The notes beneath the pieces were generated by a model. The model did no database searches. It was not told the DNA's origin and worked only from the letters and a program-made list of their open reading frames with translations. Positions 54,940-64,000 of a stretch of 64,000 nucleotides of DNA are shown piece by piece (position 1 is the stretch's first letter; every line of letters begins with the position of its first letter). Origin of the DNA: Parafrankia irregularis (GTDB lineage: Bacteria; Actinomycetota; Actinomycetes; Frankiales; Frankiaceae); NCBI RefSeq assembly GCF_001536285.1, contig NZ_FAOZ01000012.1:1-64000 (forward strand), given 5' to 3'. A program made the position numbers and the translations under genes.

Positions 54940-56544
54940 ATGACCGACACGACCGCCACACCGACGTCCGTCGCCGTCCCGGCGCAGGCGCAGGCGCAGG
55001 CGCAGACCGGACGCGGTTCCGCGGAACCCGGCCGGCAGGCACCGGACGGCCTGCCTGCCACAACGCAGCCTCCGCAGCCCCCGCCGGCGACGGCGGCGGG
55101 CTCCGACAGTCTCACCGCTCGGCAGCGCGTCGCGCTCCTGCTGCTGCTCGGAACGCAGTTCATGCTCGCGGTCGACTTCTCCATCCTGAACGTCGCCCTG
55201 CCCTCCATCGGCGCCGGCGTGGGGTTCTCCGAAGGCCACCTGCAGTGGATCGCGACGGCCTTCGCGCTCCCGTCCGCCGGCTTCACGCTGCTGTTCGCGC
55301 GGGTCGCCGATCTCACCGGGCGGCTCCGGCTGTTCATGACCGGGCTGGGGCTGCTCGTCGTCGCCTCGCTGGTCGGCGGGGTGGCGAGCACTCCGGCGGT
55401 GCTGCTCGCCGCCCGCGTGGGCCAGGGGATGGCCGCGGCCATCGCCACGCCGGCCGCGCTCTCGCTGCTGGTGACCACGTTCCCGGAGGGGCCGGCCCGC
55501 CAGCGGGCACTCGGGCTCAACGGTGCGCTCCTGCCGGCCGGGTTCACCATCGGCGCCCTCATCGGCGGCCTGCTCACGCAGTACCTGAGCTGGCGCTGGG
55601 CCTTCCTGCTGAACGTGCCGATCGCGCTCGCCATCCTGGCCGCCGCACCGCGGGTGGTCACGGACGGGCGCGGTGAGACGGGCGGGCGACTGGACGTCCC
55701 GGGTGCGCTGACCGTCACCGGCGGGCTGGTGGCGCTGATCTACGGGATCTCCACCGGTGGCGAGGACGGCTGGGGCCGGCCCGTCGTGTGGATCACTGCC
55801 GGGGTGGGCCTGGCGTTGCTGGTCGCCTTCTGGCGCATCGAGTCGACCAGCTCGCATCCGCTCGCGTCACTGGCCGTGCTGCGCCGGCGCGCGGTGGGTG
55901 GCGGCAACGCCGGCGGATTCGTGATCTTCGCGATGGGCAGCGCGATCGTCTTCCTGCTCACCGTCTACCTGCAGGAGCTGCTCGGCTACTCGGCCATGGT
56001 CACCGGGCTGATCTTCGGTGTCCCGGGCGCGGCGGCCTTCACCGCCGGCATCGTCGCGCCGCGGGTCCTGCGCCGGATCAGCCCGCGGACGACCCTCGTC
56101 ACGGCGCTGTTCGTCCAGGGGGCGTCCGCCGTGGCGCTGGCGTTCGTCGACCTGGACCGCACCTCGCTCACCCTGGTGATGGTCGCGTCGGTGCTCGGGT
56201 TCTTCGGCCATGCCCTCGGCATCGTCGGGTTCCTGGTGACGGCGACCGCGGACCTGCCCGACGACGAACAGGGTCTCGCCACCGGGCTCGCGACCATGAC
56301 CCAGCAGATCGGGCTCACCGTCGGGATCCCGATCCTGAGCGCGGTCGTCGCCGCGAACGCCGCCGGAGCCCCCGGCACCCTCGCCGCCGACGAGGCGACC
56401 CTGGACGGCATCAGGATGGCCCTGTCCATCGACGGCGCCGTCACGATCGCGGCCGGGTTCGCCGTCGCCGCCATCCTCCCCCGCCTGCGGACACGAACAG
56501 CACACACCGCGACCGACGCCGCCGCCGGGCGTACGACCGGGTGA
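54940..56544 (+). CDS. MFS transporter, DHA2 (EmrB/QacA-like) drug exporter
   Basis: The 534-aa transporter begins with a cytoplasmic Ala/Gln/Pro-rich tail (1-60) followed by about 14 TM helices. Motif C-like and DHA2 signatures are visible: FMLAVDFSILNVALPSIG, QWIATAFALPSAGFTLLFARVADLTGR, and the ALLPAGFTIGALIGGLLTQYLSWRWAF segment. It exports small hydrophobic compounds by proton antiport. A short QAQAQAQ run is encoded by a CAGGCG microrepeat (54980-55000). It is paired with the divergent HTH regulator. Confidence 0.92.
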   Translation: MTDTTATPTSVAVPAQAQAQAQTGRGSAEPGRQAPDGLPATTQPPQPPPATAAGSDSLTARQRVALLLLLGTQFMLAVDFSILNVALPSIGAGVGFSEGHLQWIATAFALPSAGFTLLFARVADLTGRLRLFMTGLGLLVVASLVGGVASTPAVLLAARVGQGMAAAIATPAALSLLVTTFPEGPARQRALGLNGALLPAGFTIGALIGGLLTQYLSWRWAFLLNVPIALAILAAAPRVVTDGRGETGGRLDVPGALTVTGGLVALIYGISTGGEDGWGRPVVWITAGVGLALLVAFWRIESTSSHPLASLAVLRRRAVGGGNAGGFVIFAMGSAIVFLLTVYLQELLGYSAMVTGLIFGVPGAAAFTAGIVAPRVLRRISPRTTLVTALFVQGASAVALAFVDLDRTSLTLVMVASVLGFFGHALGIVGFLVTATADLPDDEQGLATGLATMTQQIGLTVGIPILSAVVAANAAGAPGTLAADEATLDGIRMALSIDGAVTIAAGFAVAAILPRLRTRTAHTATDAAAGRTTG

Positions 56545-56734
56545 GGCGGGTGCGTTTTCCAGAGGGTTTCTCCACCCTGTTCGCAGCAAAGCGACAACGA
56601 GATCCGCCGACGGCCGCACCGGCTGGGTGGGGGCCTTTTCCGGCCCCACCTGGCTGGATGTCAGCCATCGGATAGGCCGATCGCCCGGGCCCGGCGGGCC
56701 GGTGGGCCGGTGCCGGCTATTCTCGGCGACCACC

Positions 56735-59425
56735 ATGACCACACCCGCGGATTTCTTTGCCGGACATGAGGGCGCCGTGCGCGCGATCGCGGTCTTCCCG
56801 GACGGCCGCCGAATCGTCACCGGCGGAGCCGACAGCAGAATCCGGGTCTGGGACCTGCCGTCGGGCCGGCTGCTCACCGAACACACCGCGCACACCGGCC
56901 CCGTCCTCGCGGTGGCGGTGGACGAGCAGTGCCAGGTGATCTCCAGCGACCAGCGGAAGACGGTCGTCTGGGCGAGCGAGCCTGCCGCGGCCTCGTCCGC
57001 GGCGCCATCCTCGGTGCCGTATCCGAGGCGCGTCGCCGAGACAGCCGTCTCGCCCCGCGGGGACACCGTGGTCAGCATCGACACCGGCCAGGACGTCGTC
57101 ATCCAGCCTCCCGGGACCGGCAGCTGGCCCAGCGGCCACCGGCGCGTCGACAGCATCGCGGTGAGCGACGGAGGGCAGGTCGTCACCGGCGGATCGGAGC
57201 CGATCGTCCGCGTGACGGATCTGCACGGGGCCGAGCTGCGCCGACTGGACGGTGCCGCGCACAGCAGTGTCGCCGTGGCGGCCTCCCACGACGGCAGCCA
57301 CATCGCCGTCGCGTTCGAGGAGGCTGTGAAGTACTGGGACGTTGCAAACTCCGCTACGGCGTTCGACCTGGCCGGCTGCGAGGACGCCGTCGCCCTGGCG
57401 GTGACCCCGGACGGCAGGCAGATCGTCGCGGGCGACGTCCGTGGCGGGATCTGGGTGTGGAACGCGGAGCAGCCCGGCCAGGCACCGGTGAGGCTGCGGG
57501 GCCACGACAAGGCGGTGCGGGCCTTCGCCGTCACACCGGACAACAAGCGCCTGGTCAGCGGCGCCGATGACGGCACGATCCGGCTGTGGGACCTGGCGAC
57601 GGGTGCGCGGATCACGCCGGGCACCGCCCCCGGCCCGCTGCCGGGCCACGTCAGCGATCAGGAAAGCGCGCTCGACCTGCTCGGGTTCGCCACGGACGTC
57701 GAGAGCATGGCCGCGCTCCTCGCGGACCGCTCGACCGAGCCGCCGCTGGCGATCGCGCTGCTCGGCCGGTGGGGCTCCGGCAAGTCGAGCTTCGCCCGCC
57801 AGCTCCACGACCGGGTGGCCGCGCTGGCCGAGCAGTCCAGCCGCAGCGCGGCGCGCAGCATCTTCGCGACCAACATCCGCCAGGTGCGCTTCGACGCCTG
57901 GCACTACAACGACGACCACCTGTGGGTGGGCATGGCCGAGCACCTCTTCGCCGGCCTCGTCGAGCCGGAGCCGTCGGACACCGAGCAGATCCGCGCGAGG
58001 CGGGAGGTCCTGCGCGACAGGCTGCGCGCCTTCGAGGACCTGGCCGCCGAGGACACCAGCTGGGCACAGCGACTGCGGGCCCGGGCCCGGCTGTGGCGGG
58101 TCGACCTCGCGCGGTGGCGTGGCCGGTTCGTCCTGGCGGGGGCGGTGCTGGTGCTGGGAGTGTGCATCGGTCTGGTCGGCGTGCTGTGGGGCCCGGCCCC
58201 GGTGGTGGCGGTCGGTGGCGTCGTCGCCGTGCTGGCCGGGTTTCCCATCGTCGGCTGGCTCGTGGCGGCCTGGCAGGCGGTCAGCGGGCTCGACCAGCGG
58301 CGTGTCAACGAACTGGAGCAACAGGCGCGGGACACCCGGATGCAGCTGGCCACGCTCGACGCCGCGCAGCGGCTGGCGGTCGTGATCGAGCAGGCCCGGT
58401 CGGGCGCCTACGACCAGTATCGCGGGCTGCTCGGCCAGGTCCACGCCGACCTGCGCCAGCTCAGCGACAGCGCGCGGCGGGCCTTCGCCGAGTGGACGAG
58501 GGCCGGCTCCCGGGGCAGGCCTCCGTTGGAGCGGGTCATCCTCTACATCGACGACCTCGACCGCTGTTCGCCTCGCAGGGTGGTCGACGTTCTCGCCGCG
58601 GTGCACATGCTGCTGGCGCTTCCGCTGTTCGTCGTGGTGGTCGCCGTGGATCCCCGGTGGCTTCGGCGCTGCCTCGAGCAGTACTACGCCGAGATCTTCG
58701 CCGGGAACGCGGACGCCGCCGGCGGCGCGACACCGTTCGACTACCTGGACAAGATCTTCCAGGTGGTCTTCGCGCTGCGGCCGATGGGGGCCGAGGCCGA
58801 CCGCTACGTGGAGTGGCTCGTGCCGACGGCCGCCGAGAACGAACGCCCCCGGCGCCGGGAAGCCGAACCGCCTGAGGCCAGGCCGCGCCCCGGTTCCGGG
58901 GAGCCCGACCGGCCCGGGCCGGGACGCACCGGGCGGGCGGCCACACCCGGCGGGATGCCGCCCCAGCCGGACCAGCTGCGGCTGCGCCCCCAGGAGCTGC
59001 GGTTCGTCCAGCGGCTACGCCCGATGCTGGAGACACCGCGCGCGCTGAAACGGTTCGTCAACCTGTACCGCCTGGTGCGCGCGGGAATTCCCGACAACGA
59101 GCTCGACGACTTCATCGGCATCGACGAAAACGGCCCCTACCAGGCGGTGCTCGTACTGCTCGCGGTACTCGTGGCCGATCCGGAAGGCGGCCGGACCCTG
59201 ATAAAGGCGCTACACGGACAAGTCGACGGGACCGGTATCCACGAGCTGATCGAGGAGCTGTCCCGCCGCGAACAGCCCTGGCGGGTACACGACATCTGGG
59301 CGCGTCTGCTGGCTCTGCTGGGAGACGGGAATTCCGTACACAGTAGTCTTCCCACCTACCGGCGCTGGGCGGGAACGACGGCGCGGTTCAGTTTCGAGAC
59401 CTGGGATCTGACCGAGCCCCGCTGA
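56735..59425 (+). CDS. WD40-repeat KAP family P-loop NTPase
   Basis: The 896-aa protein combines WD40 blades in residues 1-300 (SRIRVWDLPSGRLL, GGIWVWNAEQPG, GTIRLWDLATGA) with a KAP NTPase. Walker A is GRWGSGKSSF with K350. Then come RQVRFDAWHYNDDHLW, two TM helices at about 465-510 (AGAVLVLGVCIGLVGVL; VAVGGVVAVLAGFPIVGW), Walker B ILYIDDLDRC (D606/D607/D609) and ALKRFVNLYRLVR near the end. KAP NTPases insert their TM pair into the membrane, with ATPase and WD40 parts facing the cytosol. Many are linked to phage or plasmid conflict. It is 17 bp upstream of the vWA gene, first of a probable four-gene operon. Confidence 0.88.
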   Translation: MTTPADFFAGHEGAVRAIAVFPDGRRIVTGGADSRIRVWDLPSGRLLTEHTAHTGPVLAVAVDEQCQVISSDQRKTVVWASEPAAASSAAPSSVPYPRRVAETAVSPRGDTVVSIDTGQDVVIQPPGTGSWPSGHRRVDSIAVSDGGQVVTGGSEPIVRVTDLHGAELRRLDGAAHSSVAVAASHDGSHIAVAFEEAVKYWDVANSATAFDLAGCEDAVALAVTPDGRQIVAGDVRGGIWVWNAEQPGQAPVRLRGHDKAVRAFAVTPDNKRLVSGADDGTIRLWDLATGARITPGTAPGPLPGHVSDQESALDLLGFATDVESMAALLADRSTEPPLAIALLGRWGSGKSSFARQLHDRVAALAEQSSRSAARSIFATNIRQVRFDAWHYNDDHLWVGMAEHLFAGLVEPEPSDTEQIRARREVLRDRLRAFEDLAAEDTSWAQRLRARARLWRVDLARWRGRFVLAGAVLVLGVCIGLVGVLWGPAPVVAVGGVVAVLAGFPIVGWLVAAWQAVSGLDQRRVNELEQQARDTRMQLATLDAAQRLAVVIEQARSGAYDQYRGLLGQVHADLRQLSDSARRAFAEWTRAGSRGRPPLERVILYIDDLDRCSPRRVVDVLAAVHMLLALPLFVVVVAVDPRWLRRCLEQYYAEIFAGNADAAGGATPFDYLDKIFQVVFALRPMGAEADRYVEWLVPTAAENERPRRREAEPPEARPRPGSGEPDRPGPGRTGRAATPGGMPPQPDQLRLRPQELRFVQRLRPMLETPRALKRFVNLYRLVRAGIPDNELDDFIGIDENGPYQAVLVLLAVLVADPEGGRTLIKALHGQVDGTGIHELIEELSRREQPWRVHDIWARLLALLGDGNSVHSSLPTYRRWAGTTARFSFETWDLTEPR

Positions 59426-59441
59426 CCATCAGGAGGCGACC

Positions 59442-61307
59442 GTGTTCGGCGGACGGGCACACCGGTTCTTCCGCCGCCGTCACGCACTCGGCGGTCTGGT
59501 CGGCGTCGTCCTCGTCGCGGCGACCGCGGTGGCGCCGCGCGTCGCGGTCGGCGGCCACGGCCCGGCCGACTGCGACCGCACGGAGACGATCCGGGTCACC
59601 TCGTCCACGGAGAAGGCCGGCGTCATGGCGCAGCTCGTCGACCGGTACAACGACGCGGGGCGCGCCGTGGCCGGCCTGTGCGGGCACGTCCAGCTCAGCG
59701 CCCGCACCTCCGGGGCGACGAAGAACGACCTCGCCGAAGGCATGAAGGACCCACCGCAGGTGTGGCTGCCGACGTCGTCGATGTGGACGAGCCTGCTCGC
59801 GCAGGAGGGGCACGGCGACCTCCTGGTGCCCGAGCCCGCGCACCGGTCGGTGACCCGGAGCATGCTCGTCATCGCGATGCCACAACCGGTGGCCGAGACG
59901 CTGGCGCAGCACGGCGCCCCGCTCGCCACCTGGAAGGACGTGCTCGACCTGGCGCAGAAGGGCTGGTCCGCCTACGGCCGATCGGAATGGGGGAAGTTCG
60001 TGCTCGGCCGGGACAACGCGGAGACGTCGACCTCAGGGCTGGCCGCCACGGTCGCCACCTATCTCGCCGCCGCCCACGCGACCGGAACCGCGACCACACC
60101 CACCTCCGACTGGCTCAACGATCCGGACGTCGTCGGTTTCGTGCACGGAATCGAGTCGTCGGTTTCGCGGTACGGCGACGAGGCGGTGCTGTTCATGCAG
60201 CAGATCTACGACGCCGAGCAAAAACAGGACGATGCCGCCTACCGGCCGTATGTCGACGCGATAGTCATCCAGGAGCAGATGGTCTACCTGTACAACCGAG
60301 GCGCGCCCGGCGGCGATCCGGCCCAGATGAGCGATGAGCGCCAGCCACGCCGTCCGCTTCGGGTGGTGTATCCGCAGGACGGCACGCTCGAGCTCGATCA
60401 CCCGTTCGTCGTGCTGGCCTCGGCGACGCCGACGCAGCGCCGCGTCGCGGAGGACTTCTACCGTTTCCTGGTCGAGGACGACCAGCAGCGGCTGTTCGCC
60501 GACGTCGGTTTCCGCCCGCTGCCCGCCAGCTCCACCGAGAACGACGAGCACGACAAGCCCGACGAGCACGATGGGCAGTCCACGGCCACCCGGCCGACCG
60601 AGCAGCTCGTACGGACGCTCGGCATACCGGCGGATCAGGCGCCGGCGCTCGTGCCGGTCCCCGACGGCAAGCTGCTCGCGGCAATGCTCGAGAACTGGGA
60701 CCGGGTACGGCGCAAGGCCCGGGTGCTGCTGCTGCTCGATGTGTCGGGCTCGATGAACGAACCTGTCGACGACCCGGACAAGGCCGTCGACGCGACGAAG
60801 CTGCAGCTGATGATCCCAGCCGCCGAACGTGCGCTCAAGCTGCTCGACGACGATGACGAGGTGGGCCTGTGGACGTTCTCCTCAGGCCCGGCCTACACCG
60901 AGGTCGTGCCGGTGTCACCGGTCGGCACGGTCCGCGCCGCGCTGCAGGAGCGGCTGCGGGGACTGCGGGCACGCGGGGACACCGCCCTGTTCGAGGCCAC
61001 CCAGCGGGCCAGCGAGATGATGACGGCGAACGCGGACCCGGAGCGCATCAACGCCATCGTGCTGCTCAGCGACGGGCAGAACACCGAGCGATACCCCGGT
61101 GACGCGAAGGCGCTGCTGGCCGCCCTGGACCCGGGCACCTCGGACACGCCCGTCCGGATCTTCACCGTCCCCTACGGCCGGGCCGACAACGCCGACGTCG
61201 GCACGCTCGCGGAGATCGCGCGCCTGACCCGGGCGGCCCAGTACGACGCCCGCAACCCGCTGGACATCGACGCGGCTTTCGTCCGGGTCTTCCGGAACTT
61301 CGGCTGA
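59442..61307 (+). CDS. substrate-binding-protein-like domain fused to vWA domain
   Basis: The 621-aa protein has an N-terminal signal anchor (RRRHALGGLVGVVLVAATAVA). A periplasmic-binding-protein-like part (about 45-370) has IRVTSSTEKAGVMAQLVDRYN, VWLPTSSMWTSLLA, GWSAYGRSEWGKFVLGRDN and FYRFLVEDDQQRLFADVGFRP. A C-terminal vWA domain has a complete MIDAS: DVSGSM (D433, S435, S437), T514 in RGDTALF and D544 in LLSDGQ. It should sit outside the membrane and bind a partner through a metal. An acidic linker (ENDEHDKPDEHDG) joins the parts. AGGAGG precedes GTG 59442. No ABC permease is adjacent, so it is not a classical importer. Confidence 0.85.
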   Translation: MFGGRAHRFFRRRHALGGLVGVVLVAATAVAPRVAVGGHGPADCDRTETIRVTSSTEKAGVMAQLVDRYNDAGRAVAGLCGHVQLSARTSGATKNDLAEGMKDPPQVWLPTSSMWTSLLAQEGHGDLLVPEPAHRSVTRSMLVIAMPQPVAETLAQHGAPLATWKDVLDLAQKGWSAYGRSEWGKFVLGRDNAETSTSGLAATVATYLAAAHATGTATTPTSDWLNDPDVVGFVHGIESSVSRYGDEAVLFMQQIYDAEQKQDDAAYRPYVDAIVIQEQMVYLYNRGAPGGDPAQMSDERQPRRPLRVVYPQDGTLELDHPFVVLASATPTQRRVAEDFYRFLVEDDQQRLFADVGFRPLPASSTENDEHDKPDEHDGQSTATRPTEQLVRTLGIPADQAPALVPVPDGKLLAAMLENWDRVRRKARVLLLLDVSGSMNEPVDDPDKAVDATKLQLMIPAAERALKLLDDDDEVGLWTFSSGPAYTEVVPVSPVGTVRAALQERLRGLRARGDTALFEATQRASEMMTANADPERINAIVLLSDGQNTERYPGDAKALLAALDPGTSDTPVRIFTVPYGRADNADVGTLAEIARLTRAAQYDARNPLDIDAAFVRVFRNFG

Positions 61308-61310
61308 ACG

Positions 61311-61850
61311 GTGGCGCTTCCACAGCGGTTCCAGGATCCGGTCGGGGTCGGCGAGGCCGTCGTGCTCGGACTCGGCGCGTTCGTGGCCGGGCTGGTCGGG
61401 CCGTGGCCGTGGCTGGCCGGTGTGGCCGGGCCGGTGACGGCGGCCCTCGTCCTGATCACGGCTACCCGACGCGGCCCGCAGCCGCCGCCCCCTCCTCCGC
61501 AGCCGCACCCGCTGGGAGCGGCGGACGCCGTCCGGCTGGTGCGGGAGTGGAGGGAGGACCTGGGAGCAGACCATCCCGCCCGCTCCCGCGCCGACGAGGT
61601 GTGCGAGCTGGCCGACACGGTCGAGTTGCTGATCCTGCGGCGGGAACACGTGATCGCCGGTATCGAGGAGGCCGCGGCGCGGGAGGCGATGGCCCGCGAC
61701 CTGAGCCTGGACATCGCATACCTCACGCGCTTTCTGGACAGCTTCTACGTCTCCAGAGGGATCGCTCCGACGAGAACGGTCCACTGGGACGAGCTTCGGG
61801 AGCGCTTCAACCGGGTGCACGGCATGCTCCACAACGATCCCGATCTTTGA
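61311..61850 (+). CDS. two-TM protein with helical cytoplasmic domain
   Basis: The 179-aa protein starts 3 bp after the vWA gene. Two hydrophobic helices (about 13-50; AVVLGLGAFVAGLVGPWPWLAGVAGPVTAALVLI) are followed by a Pro run (PQPPPPPPQP). The helical domain that follows has AADAVRLVREWREDLGADH, ELADTVELLILRREHVIAG and DIAYLTRFLDSFYVSRGI. I know no family for it. Near-zero spacing implies co-translation with the vWA protein, and it may link that protein or the KAP ATPase to the membrane. GTG start. Confidence 0.7.
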   Translation: MALPQRFQDPVGVGEAVVLGLGAFVAGLVGPWPWLAGVAGPVTAALVLITATRRGPQPPPPPPQPHPLGAADAVRLVREWREDLGADHPARSRADEVCELADTVELLILRREHVIAGIEEAAAREAMARDLSLDIAYLTRFLDSFYVSRGIAPTRTVHWDELRERFNRVHGMLHNDPDL

Positions 61851-61967
61851 CCCGCACGTCCCAGCGGGCACGGCCACTCGGCACGCGGCCGTGCCTGCAC
61901 GCCCGGCTGTGTGCCCGCGGGGTATCCGGGAAGCATCCGAGGGAGGAGCTGCGCGGAGGAGAGGGCC

Positions 61968-63311
61968 GTGGCGGAGTACGGGGATCGCGGTGGCACGGGG
62001 GCACCGCCGTGCTCGGTTCGTCCCGAGCTGGACTCGAAACCGGAGCCGGACCCGGAGCGTTGGCCTGGCCTGGAACCTGTGACCGAGCTGGAACCGGTGC
62101 CGGCGGCCGTGGCCGGGTTACTGGCGACTGCCCGCGGCTGCCTCGAAGTGGATGTCTGCTGGCTGTCCCGGCTGATCGGCGGGACCCAGGTGATCGAGGC
62201 CTGCAGTGGGGACGCGGCCTCGTTCGGCGTTCGCCCCGGCTCGACCGTCCGCTACGGCGACCGGCGGCACTCGCGCGGGCACACCGGCCACCGGCCCGCA
62301 CCGGCCGGTCAGACGGGGCCGAGCACAGGCACAGGCACGACGGTTGCCGAGGGTCAGGTCTCCGGGCGGCTCGGAGCGGGTTCGTACCTCGGGGTCCCGG
62401 TGGTGCTGGCGGACGGGCGACCGTACGGGATGCTGTGCTGCCTGAGCCACGACCGCGCCCTCACCGCACGTGGCCGCCAGGCGCGGTCCCTGATCCTGCT
62501 CGCCGGCGTGCTCGCCGAGTCGCTTTCCTGCCAGCGGCCGGACCTGGAGGCACGGCGCGGGCGGTTCCGGCAGCTGATCGACAACGGCGGTCCCCGGATG
62601 ACGTTCCAGCCGGTCTTCGAGCTGCCGTCGATGGACTGCATGGGAGCGGAGGCGCTGGCGCGGTTCCCCCCGGATTTCGGTGGCCCTGAGCGTTGCTTCG
62701 CGGAGGCCGCCGAGCTGGGTCTGGACCTCGCTCTCGAGGTGTCCGCGATCAGGGTGGCGCTGCGCGCCCTGCCACGGCTCGCACCCGAGTTCGGCCTCGG
62801 CATCAACGCGTCTCCGACCACGGTCGTCTCCGGGGAGATCGCCAAGGTGATCGCCGACGTCCCCGCCGAGCGCCTCGTTCTCGAGATCACCGAGCACGAC
62901 CGCATCGACGACTACCCGGCGATGGACCGCGCTCTCGATGTCCTGCGCCGGGAGGGTGTCCGGGTCGCCGTGGACGACGTCGGCCGCGGCTCCGCGGGCC
63001 TGCGTCACCTCGTACACCTGCGGCCGGACTTCATCAAGATGGACCGCTGCCTCACCCAGCACATCGACGTCGATCCGGCCCGACGCGCACTCGCGACCGC
63101 GCTCGTGAGCTTCGCGCGGGAGACCGACGGGCTGGTCCTCGCCGAAGGTGTCGAGACCGCCGCGGAGCTCGACGTGCTGATCGGCGCCGGCGTTCACCAG
63201 GCCCAGGGCCACTACCTCGCACCCCCGGGACCGCTCCCCCTACCCCCGAACGCCGATCAGACCCCTCCGGTGGCCAAGGCGTCACCGTCGGGCCCGGTCC
63301 GAGGATCGTAG
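61968..63311 (+). CDS. GAF-EAL domain cyclic-di-GMP phosphodiesterase
   Basis: The 447-aa protein has a GAF-like sensor (about 30-190; LLATARGCLEVDVCWLSRLIGG, GSYLGVPVVLADGRPYGMLCCL) and an EAL domain (200-430). The EAL domain contains MTFQPVFELPS, GAEALARF (EAL motif), LGINASPTT, LEITEHD, VAVDDVGRGSAGL, FIKMDR and LAEGVET. Key catalytic residues are present; DDVGRG replaces DDFGTG, a tolerated change. It should hydrolyse c-di-GMP to pGpG. GTG 61968 has GGAGGAGAGGG upstream; it is 117 bp after the TM protein and may be in the same operon. Confidence 0.9.
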   Translation: MAEYGDRGGTGAPPCSVRPELDSKPEPDPERWPGLEPVTELEPVPAAVAGLLATARGCLEVDVCWLSRLIGGTQVIEACSGDAASFGVRPGSTVRYGDRRHSRGHTGHRPAPAGQTGPSTGTGTTVAEGQVSGRLGAGSYLGVPVVLADGRPYGMLCCLSHDRALTARGRQARSLILLAGVLAESLSCQRPDLEARRGRFRQLIDNGGPRMTFQPVFELPSMDCMGAEALARFPPDFGGPERCFAEAAELGLDLALEVSAIRVALRALPRLAPEFGLGINASPTTVVSGEIAKVIADVPAERLVLEITEHDRIDDYPAMDRALDVLRREGVRVAVDDVGRGSAGLRHLVHLRPDFIKMDRCLTQHIDVDPARRALATALVSFARETDGLVLAEGVETAAELDVLIGAGVHQAQGHYLAPPGPLPLPPNADQTPPVAKASPSGPVRGS

Positions 63312-63534: not shown

Positions 63535-64000
63535 TCAATTAGGGAAAGGCGGCGGCTCGGAGGGGCGATACCCGCCTTTGACCGACCGATCGATCTGCTG
63601 GGCCAGGTAGCTTCGGGCGCCCTCGACGTCCTTCTTGAACGGCACCAGGTCGATGTAGCGGATCCCGCCGAGCAGGCCATCGGGTTCGCATTCTTCGACC
63701 CTGACAGGGATCAGTCTGCGGTCCAGGCCACCGCGGTCTCGGTTGAACGCGGTTCTCCAGGAGGCCTGGACCATGTCCGACGTCAGATAGGCCTGCGACA
63801 GCACGACGATCATGCGTCTCGAGAACCTCAGGCCTTCGTCGAGTGCCCAGTAGTCGTTGATGCCCACGGGACGCCAGGCGTCGTAGCGGACCAGGTAACC
63901 GTTCTCCTGCAGGAACCCCGCGGTCCAGGCGCCCCACGCCTCGTCGGTGTTGAGCGCGGAGACGAAGAAGTCCCACTTGGTACCGTCCGACCGAACCGGG
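63535..64000 (-). CDS. TIR-domain protein, C-terminal part (runs off window)
   Basis: The last 155 residues of a TIR protein are present; the gene continues beyond the window. Residues match the C-terminal TIR domain of the protein at 46090-47622 almost throughout (KWDFFVSALNTDEAWGAW, FLQENGYLVRYDAW, MIVVLSQAYLTSDMVQASW, IPVRVEECEPDGLLGG). It probably also has EAD and cyclase-like domains upstream, which cannot be seen. The candidate catalytic Glu of the first copy (NEYW) is Asp here (NDYW). Convergent with the EAL gene. Confidence 0.85.
   Translation of the reverse strand, partial: PVRSDGTKWDFFVSALNTDEAWGAWTAGFLQENGYLVRYDAWRPVGINDYWALDEGLRFSRRMIVVLSQAYLTSDMVQASWRTAFNRDRGGLDRRLIPVRVEECEPDGLLGGIRYIDLVPFKKDVEGARSYLAQQIDRSVKGGYRPSEPPPFPN

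What the first reader, a model, noticed from the sequence alone, without database searches (positions are those of the whole stretch)
56735..63311. WD40-KAP NTPase, SBP-vWA protein, 2-TM protein and EAL phosphodiesterase in one run
Spacings are 17, 3 and 117 bp on one strand. KAP NTPases put a TM hairpin in the membrane, and the vWA protein should sit outside with a complete MIDAS. The 2-TM protein could bridge them, and c-di-GMP turnover could be the output or control. The mixture of NTPase, vWA and WD40 resembles ternary conflict systems (vWA-MoxR-VMAP type), but the parts differ and the sensor domain is a binding protein. It may be a transmembrane signalling or defence module not yet described.
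Basis: partly seen in the sequence, partly recalled or inferred. Interest (0 to 1): 0.78.

Follow-up and report, generated by a model that had tools for sequence, protein, structure and literature searches.

The report
Membrane sensor–NTPase module in actinomycetes
Three of the four neighbouring genes form a conserved, horizontally shared unit that seems to sense something outside the cell and pass it through the membrane to an ATP-driven protein of a kind used in bacterial self-defence; the fourth gene is an unrelated neighbour.

Summary
The four genes are real and well placed. Three of them (WD40-KAP NTPase, SBP-vWA protein, small two-TM protein) form a conserved operon: same order and strand at 17 loci, in Parafrankia, Kribbella, Actinopolymorpha, Saccharopolyspora, Amycolatopsis and others. 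NTPase and vWA trees agree at every well-supported group and depart from the species tree, so the genes are inherited and transferred together. The GAF-EAL gene is not part of it: absent at every other module locus, and present in sister Parafrankia genomes that lack the module. Walker A/B and the vWA MIDAS are invariant. A lone cysteine pair at the start of the SBP, conserved or lost together, places the SBP-vWA outside the cell. The SBP-vWA plus two-TM pair is itself widespread; WD40-KAP is one of several 5' add-ons. In one genome a cytosolic trypsin is fused through a TM helix to the SBP-vWA. Best reading: an outside sensor wired across the membrane to a propeller-gated KAP NTPase of the conflict/defence kind (inferred, not shown). 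It is not a vWA-MoxR ternary system, but a MoxR-vWA-EAD1-TIR system lies convergently next door. I found no published description in the library I could search.

The parts
56485..56734 (.). Boundary of the acquired region: DNA similarity to congeners G002-G004 ends at 56485-56528 (end of the MFS gene); the module starts at 56735
   Evidence: blastn of the G000 contig against G002, G003 and G004 MFS loci; other genes follow MFS there
56735..59425 (+). WD40-KAP NTPase, 896 aa: 7-bladed WD40 propeller plus KAP P-loop NTPase
   Evidence: Pfam; AlphaFold2 model with 28 strands in residues 15-286 and mean pLDDT 75.6; Foldseek best match is a WD40 domain from Thermomonospora
56777..57592 (+). WD40 propeller (residues 15-286), fastest-evolving part of the module
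57764..57790 (+). Walker A GRWGSGKSS (residues 344-352)
   Evidence: WGSGKSS identical in 16 module loci
58116..58297 (+). Hydrophobic helical hairpin inserted in the NTPase domain (about residues 462-521)
   Evidence: Hydropathy; two long helices in the model
58550..58567 (+). Walker B core DDLDRC (residues 606-611)
   Evidence: Invariant in 16 module loci
59442..61307 (+). SBP-vWA protein, 621 aa, extracytoplasmic
   Evidence: Pfam; alignment A2; co-conserved C44/C80 pair
59493..59549 (+). Signal anchor / TM helix (residues 18-36) after an RRRH motif
59589..60515 (+). Solute-binding-protein domain (residues 50-358)
   Evidence: SBP_bac_11
60711..61283 (+). vWA domain (about residues 424-614) with MIDAS D433, S435, S437, T514, D544
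   Evidence: VIA-align Z 23.4 to a vWA structure, 4fx5 (rmsd 2.2, 178 residues aligned)
61311..61850 (+). Two-TM protein, 179 aa: N-terminal TM hairpin, proline-rich linker, helical cytosolic tail
   Evidence: positional orthologue at all 17 module loci
61968..63311 (+). GAF-EAL phosphodiesterase: adjacent, judged NOT part of the module
   Evidence: Orthologues 64-67% in G003 and G004; absent from all other module loci
63535..64000 (-). 3' end of an EAD1...TIR gene of the neighbouring MoxR-vWA system (continues beyond the window)

Best explanation
It is a three-gene transmembrane sensing module of actinomycetes. Shown by sequence and comparison: the three genes are a co-inherited, horizontally transferred unit; the NTPase and MIDAS sites are kept; the SBP-vWA lies outside the membrane. 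Inferred: the SBP domain binds a small ligand or envelope breakdown product; the vWA MIDAS binds a protein partner or peptide in a metal-dependent way; the binding state is relayed through the two-TM protein, whose helical tail is in the cytosol, to the membrane-inserted KAP NTPase; the WD40 propeller restrains or recruits, and NTP-driven assembly of the KAP protein at the membrane produces the response. Given the company KAP NTPases of this clade keep, that response is most likely a protective, conflict-type one such as growth arrest or membrane or cell shut-down on envelope attack.
For: (1) Same order and strand at 17 loci. (2) KAP and vWA trees share all well-supported groups, and Saccharopolyspora (Pseudonocardiaceae) falls with Parafrankia, Kribbella and Actinopolymorpha rather than with the other f46 loci. 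(3) Walker A/B and MIDAS invariant. (4) The SBP-vWA has two cysteines, at the start of the SBP, present in 15 of 16 loci and both lost in the 16th, as for an extracytoplasmic disulfide. (5) In L266 a trypsin-like domain is joined through one TM helix (214-232) to the SBP-vWA in one polypeptide: sensor outside, effector-type enzyme inside. (6) N-termini of other KAPs carry SEFIR, TIR, trypsin, EVE, macro, SLOG, NB-ARC or WD40, and a second KAP of Parafrankia sp. EUN1f sits beside EAD1-TIR and TIR-WD40 genes. KAP NTPases are reported in conflict and defence systems: PMC8195603, Tmn in PMC11846954, QatA in PMC13279940. (7) In the window the module begins at a point where similarity to congeners stops and abuts a MoxR-vWA-EAD1-TIR system.
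Against: No functional data. Most module loci outside Parafrankia are not obviously in defence islands. The SBP-vWA plus two-TM pair is widespread without any KAP gene, so its basic role may be ordinary envelope or nutrient sensing. No direct evidence of interaction; the SBP half of the AlphaFold2 model is poor.
Confidence: 0.5

Rival explanations
1. An ordinary envelope or nutrient signalling device: SBP-vWA plus two-TM sense a solute or envelope state, and WD40-KAP is a regulatory NTPase with no defence role.
For: The SBP-vWA plus two-TM pair is widespread without KAP: 19 of 25 non-module relatives have the two-TM gene directly 3'. Loci outside Parafrankia sit among metabolic genes.
Against: Patchy spread and transfer as a unit; 5' partners and KAP N-termini drawn from conflict-type domains.
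Confidence: 0.3
2. A chaperone or metal/oxyanion insertion system: KAP with vWA works like MoxR with vWA, and the ModA-like SBP supplies the ion.
For: MoxR-vWA pairs act as insertion chaperones (PMC7159879). SBP_bac_11 is a broad family that, from general knowledge, includes molybdate-binding proteins.
Against: The vWA is extracytoplasmic while the NTPase domain is cytosolic, so they cannot pair as MoxR and vWA do. No ABC permease or metalloenzyme in the module.
Confidence: 0.08
3. One reading: c-di-GMP hydrolysis by the GAF-EAL protein is the output or control of the module.
For: Same strand, 117 bp gap, no terminator-like site on the + strand; EAL motif residues intact by eye; linkage kept in Parafrankia sp. 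EUN1f.
Against: No EAL gene at the other module loci; EAL orthologues in G003 and G004, where the KAP and two-TM genes were not found.
Confidence: 0.06

Closest known systems
KAP-family NTPases PifA, Tmn and QatA
   Same: KAP P-loop NTPase; TM segments within the NTPase domain as in Tmn; clear PADLOC hits to QatA and PifA
   Different: N-terminal 7-bladed WD40 propeller; obligate-looking partners SBP-vWA and two-TM; QatB, QatC and QatD absent; NCBIfam QatA 66.8 bits against a cut-off of 600
vWA-MoxR ternary conflict systems (Kaur et al. 2020, PMC7159879; 2021, PMC8195603)
   Same: NTPase plus vWA protein plus third protein; a real MoxR-vWA-EAD1-TIR system is next door
   Different: NTPase is KAP, not MoxR; vWA is extracytoplasmic and fused to an SBP; no VMAP, iSTAND or EAD in the module
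System 4 EACC1/caspase two-gene membrane systems (PMC7159879)
   Same: Membrane-linked, common in actinobacteria, small TM component; a periplasmic-binding-protein domain is reported as a variant
   Different: No caspase or cyclase; two TM helices rather than one; gene order and domains differ
Streptomyces sp. CdTB01 plasmid locus: CU044_2847-family protein, trypsin-nSTAND1-WD40, vWA (L204)
   Same: WD40-bearing NTPase followed directly by a vWA gene related to the SBP-vWA C-terminus
   Different: STAND rather than KAP NTPase; trypsin; vWA protein has no SBP domain, predicted TM or two-TM partner

Membership tests
KAP P-loop NTPase family | KAP_NTPase domain with Walker A and Walker B | tested here: met
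   Pfam PF07693 78 bits, cut-off 20; motifs invariant in 16 loci
[quoted passage not shown]
   Hydrophobic hairpin between Walker A and B
vWA-MoxR ternary conflict system | MoxR-type AAA+ gene in the operon | tested here: not met
   The module NTPase is KAP; MoxR lies only in the separate convergent operon
vWA-MoxR ternary conflict system | Third component VMAP, iSTAND or similar | tested here: not met
   No such Pfam hit among the module proteins
vWA-MoxR ternary conflict system (neighbouring convergent operon) | MoxR AAA+ plus vWA plus EAD-bearing components | tested here: met
   AAA_5 3.3e-12, VWA_CoxE 7.9e-13, EAD1 in three proteins, TIR in two
vWA-MoxR ternary conflict system (neighbouring convergent operon) | Identified third component (VMAP, iSTAND2 or TERNS3) | tested here: inconclusive
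   The EAD1 protein has an unassigned C-terminal half
Qat anti-phage system | QatA equivalog score and QatB, QatC, QatD genes | tested here: not met
   66.8 bits against cut-off 600; none of these genes in the module
PifA/Tmn-type defence KAP | Demonstrated phage exclusion | not testable with these tools
   Needs plaque assays; PADLOC PifA similarity only, 39.8 bits
System 4 EACC1/caspase | Caspase or cyclase gene next to a single-TM EACC1 gene | tested here: not met
   No caspase or cyclase hit; two TM helices

The most novel reading that the evidence does not exclude
A transmembrane immune-receptor-like system of bacteria: an extracytoplasmic SBP-vWA sensor with a small two-TM relay, coupled to interchangeable cytosolic conflict effectors (WD40-KAP NTPase, or a fused trypsin), reporting attack on the cell envelope.
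Probability: 0.3. Interest if true: 0.82.

Novelty: new variant of a known kind. Interest (0 to 1): 0.62.

Why it matters
Most bacterial defence systems described so far sense inside the cell (general knowledge). A conserved, transferred unit with an outside binding protein plus MIDAS, a membrane relay and an inside propeller-KAP NTPase would be an outside-to-inside surveillance circuit comparable in layout to eukaryotic receptors. It gives KAP NTPases a concrete upstream sensor to test, and offers a role for a widespread uncharacterised gene pair (SBP-vWA plus two-TM) in actinomycetes.

Tried and rejected
Neighbours of SBP-vWA in close relatives first suggested no co-conservation; this was overturned by the KAP scan of genome contigs. 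The EAL gene as a member was rejected. The two-TM protein searched alone found only the sister genome and low-complexity matches: it diverges too fast for single-sequence search. KAP search in 200 relatives failed technically and was replaced by a shorter query in 58 genomes. No PDB chain is similar in sequence to the KAP domain. The AlphaFold2 model of SBP-vWA is poor in the SBP half, so no ligand class is claimed; the fold search tested only its vWA half. The full-length WD40-KAP fold search was filled by propellers and says nothing about KAP. Literature searches gave no description of this combination; one of them returned nothing, and the library holds open-access papers only. An empty insertion site could not be closed on the 3' side because the next flanking gene (P450) has no close orthologue in G002-G005.
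Full report
Observation. The window is G000:C12:1-64000 of a 9.54 Mb, 82-contig genome. Its closest held relative, G001, is Parafrankia sp. EUN1f: the contig and that of the EUN1f record have the same length, 121,346 bases, and both carry the same KAP locus. Four same-strand genes are present as described: WD40-KAP 56735-59425, SBP-vWA 59442-61307, two-TM 61311-61850, GAF-EAL 61968-63311. The gaps are 16, 3 and 117 bp.

Are they a unit? The sister genome has all four (KAP 96%, vWA 94%, two-TM 98%, EAL 89%). Among about 40 other SBP-vWA loci of relatives none had a KAP, two-TM (by BLAST) or EAL neighbour, which alone would have refuted the claim. A scan of 84,980 species genomes with a KAP alignment reversed this. 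The five best hits (Kribbella monticola, Actinopolymorpha pittospori, Saccharopolyspora elongata, a strain filed as Rhodococcus rhodnii, and Amycolatopsis coloradensis) have WD40-KAP, SBP-vWA and a small two-TM gene in the same order and strand. A profile search in family f46 added eleven genomes, ten of them new, since G485 is the strain filed as R. rhodnii. With the window, the sister genome and the five loci above, that makes 17 loci. All 17 have a short gene with an N-terminal TM hairpin directly after the vWA gene; in 15 both helices pass the hydropathy threshold, in two only one does.

Trees of the KAP domain and of SBP-vWA over 16 loci recover the same supported groups: window with Kribbella, Actinopolymorpha and Saccharopolyspora at 100/100 in both; g164; g152 (Amycolatopsis); g161; and L262 beside the window group. 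Saccharopolyspora belongs to Pseudonocardiaceae yet groups with Parafrankia, Kribbella and Actinopolymorpha. The pair therefore travels together. In the window, DNA similarity to three congeners stops at the end of the upstream MFS gene, 56485-56528, and different genes follow there.

The EAL gene. It is at no other module locus. Orthologues of 64-67% identity occur in congeners G003 and G004, where the two-TM and KAP genes were not found. It is a local neighbour, though co-transcription in Parafrankia is not excluded.

Anatomy. Residues 15-286 of the NTPase form 28 strands, that is seven four-stranded blades, with pLDDT near 90. The KAP domain keeps WGSGKSS and DDLDRC at 16 loci and holds a hydrophobic hairpin between the two motifs. 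The propeller is the most divergent part: 49-53% identity to the window in the four-member group, against 60-72% for the other domains. The SBP-vWA has an N-terminal signal anchor. It has two cysteines (C44, C80), conserved in 15 of 16 loci (two of them with one extra cysteine) and both missing in the 16th, as expected for a disulfide outside the cytosol. All five MIDAS residues are invariant. The two-TM protein has a short extracytoplasmic loop, a basic and proline-rich segment after the second helix and a helical tail, so the tail should be cytosolic (positive-inside inference).

A wider family. The SBP-vWA plus two-TM pair exists without KAP: 19 of 25 other SBP-vWA loci of this clade have such a gene directly 3'. 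WD40-KAP is thus a 5' addition. Another addition is seen in L266, where a trypsin-like domain is fused through one TM helix to the SBP-vWA (catalytic His, Asp and Ser seen by eye). A Streptomyces plasmid has a trypsin-nSTAND1-WD40 gene followed by a related vWA gene. KAP proteins of the wider family carry SEFIR, TIR, trypsin, EVE, macro, SLOG, NB-ARC or WD40 at the N-terminus, and one in Parafrankia sp. EUN1f sits beside EAD1-TIR and TIR-WD40 genes. These are domains of the conflict systems of Kaur et al., who note KAP as an alternative to STAND NTPases (PMC8195603). Tmn and QatA are KAP proteins of known defence systems.

The neighbourhood. Past the window edge, and convergent with the module, lie an EAD1 gene ending in TIR, a CoxE-type vWA gene, a MoxR gene, an EAD1 gene and a divergent EAD1-TIR gene. 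This is a MoxR-vWA system with the effector on a separate gene, the layout described for iSTAND2/TERNS3 systems; which of these it is was not resolved.

Mechanism. Shown: co-inheritance, intact active sites, topology of the SBP-vWA by disulfide pattern and by the trypsin fusion. Inferred: ligand binding by the SBP domain, partner binding at the MIDAS, relay by the two-TM protein, propeller control of KAP, a protective outcome. I put the defence/conflict reading at 0.5 and an ordinary envelope-signalling role at 0.3.

Limits. Family labels f46 and so on are anonymous; g152 is taken as Amycolatopsis because its loci are 84-91% identical to that of A. coloradensis. Nothing here tests transcription, interaction or phage resistance.

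Noticed in passing
window 63535-64000 and L073:535-7446 (G000:C12:63535-70446): A MoxR-vWA-EAD1-TIR conflict system runs convergently to the module; the window holds only the TIR end of its last gene.
   Followed up: partly
L073:535-2940 versus L052:3916-5928: The EAD1 effector gene ends in a TIR domain in the window genome but stops before it in Parafrankia sp. EUN1f: gain or loss of the TIR effector between sister species. A cyclase-like middle part was seen by eye only.
   Followed up: no
L052:8231-10071: The SBP-vWA gene of Parafrankia sp. EUN1f is split by a frameshift near its residue 530; assembly error or real.
   Followed up: no
L119:5878-13608: Second KAP gene of Parafrankia sp. EUN1f, followed by EAD1-TIR and TIR-WD40 genes.
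   Followed up: partly
L266:6367-8748: Single protein: trypsin-like domain, TM helix, SBP, vWA.
   Followed up: partly
L204:2134-7837: Streptomyces sp. CdTB01 plasmid: CU044_2847-family gene, trypsin-nSTAND1-WD40 gene and vWA gene in a row.
   Followed up: partly
L118:9040-12750; L097:6864-10358; L098:6756-10373: KAP proteins with peptidoglycan-binding domains (Pfam), and by eye Clp-N-like or TIR-like N-termini; the L097 gene lies beside a DUF4062 gene and near DarT and SIR2 genes.
   Followed up: no
L127 / L254: The strain filed as Rhodococcus rhodnii NRRL B-16535 has a 12.4 Mb genome in the same family as Amycolatopsis-like genomes; the name looks wrong.
   Followed up: no
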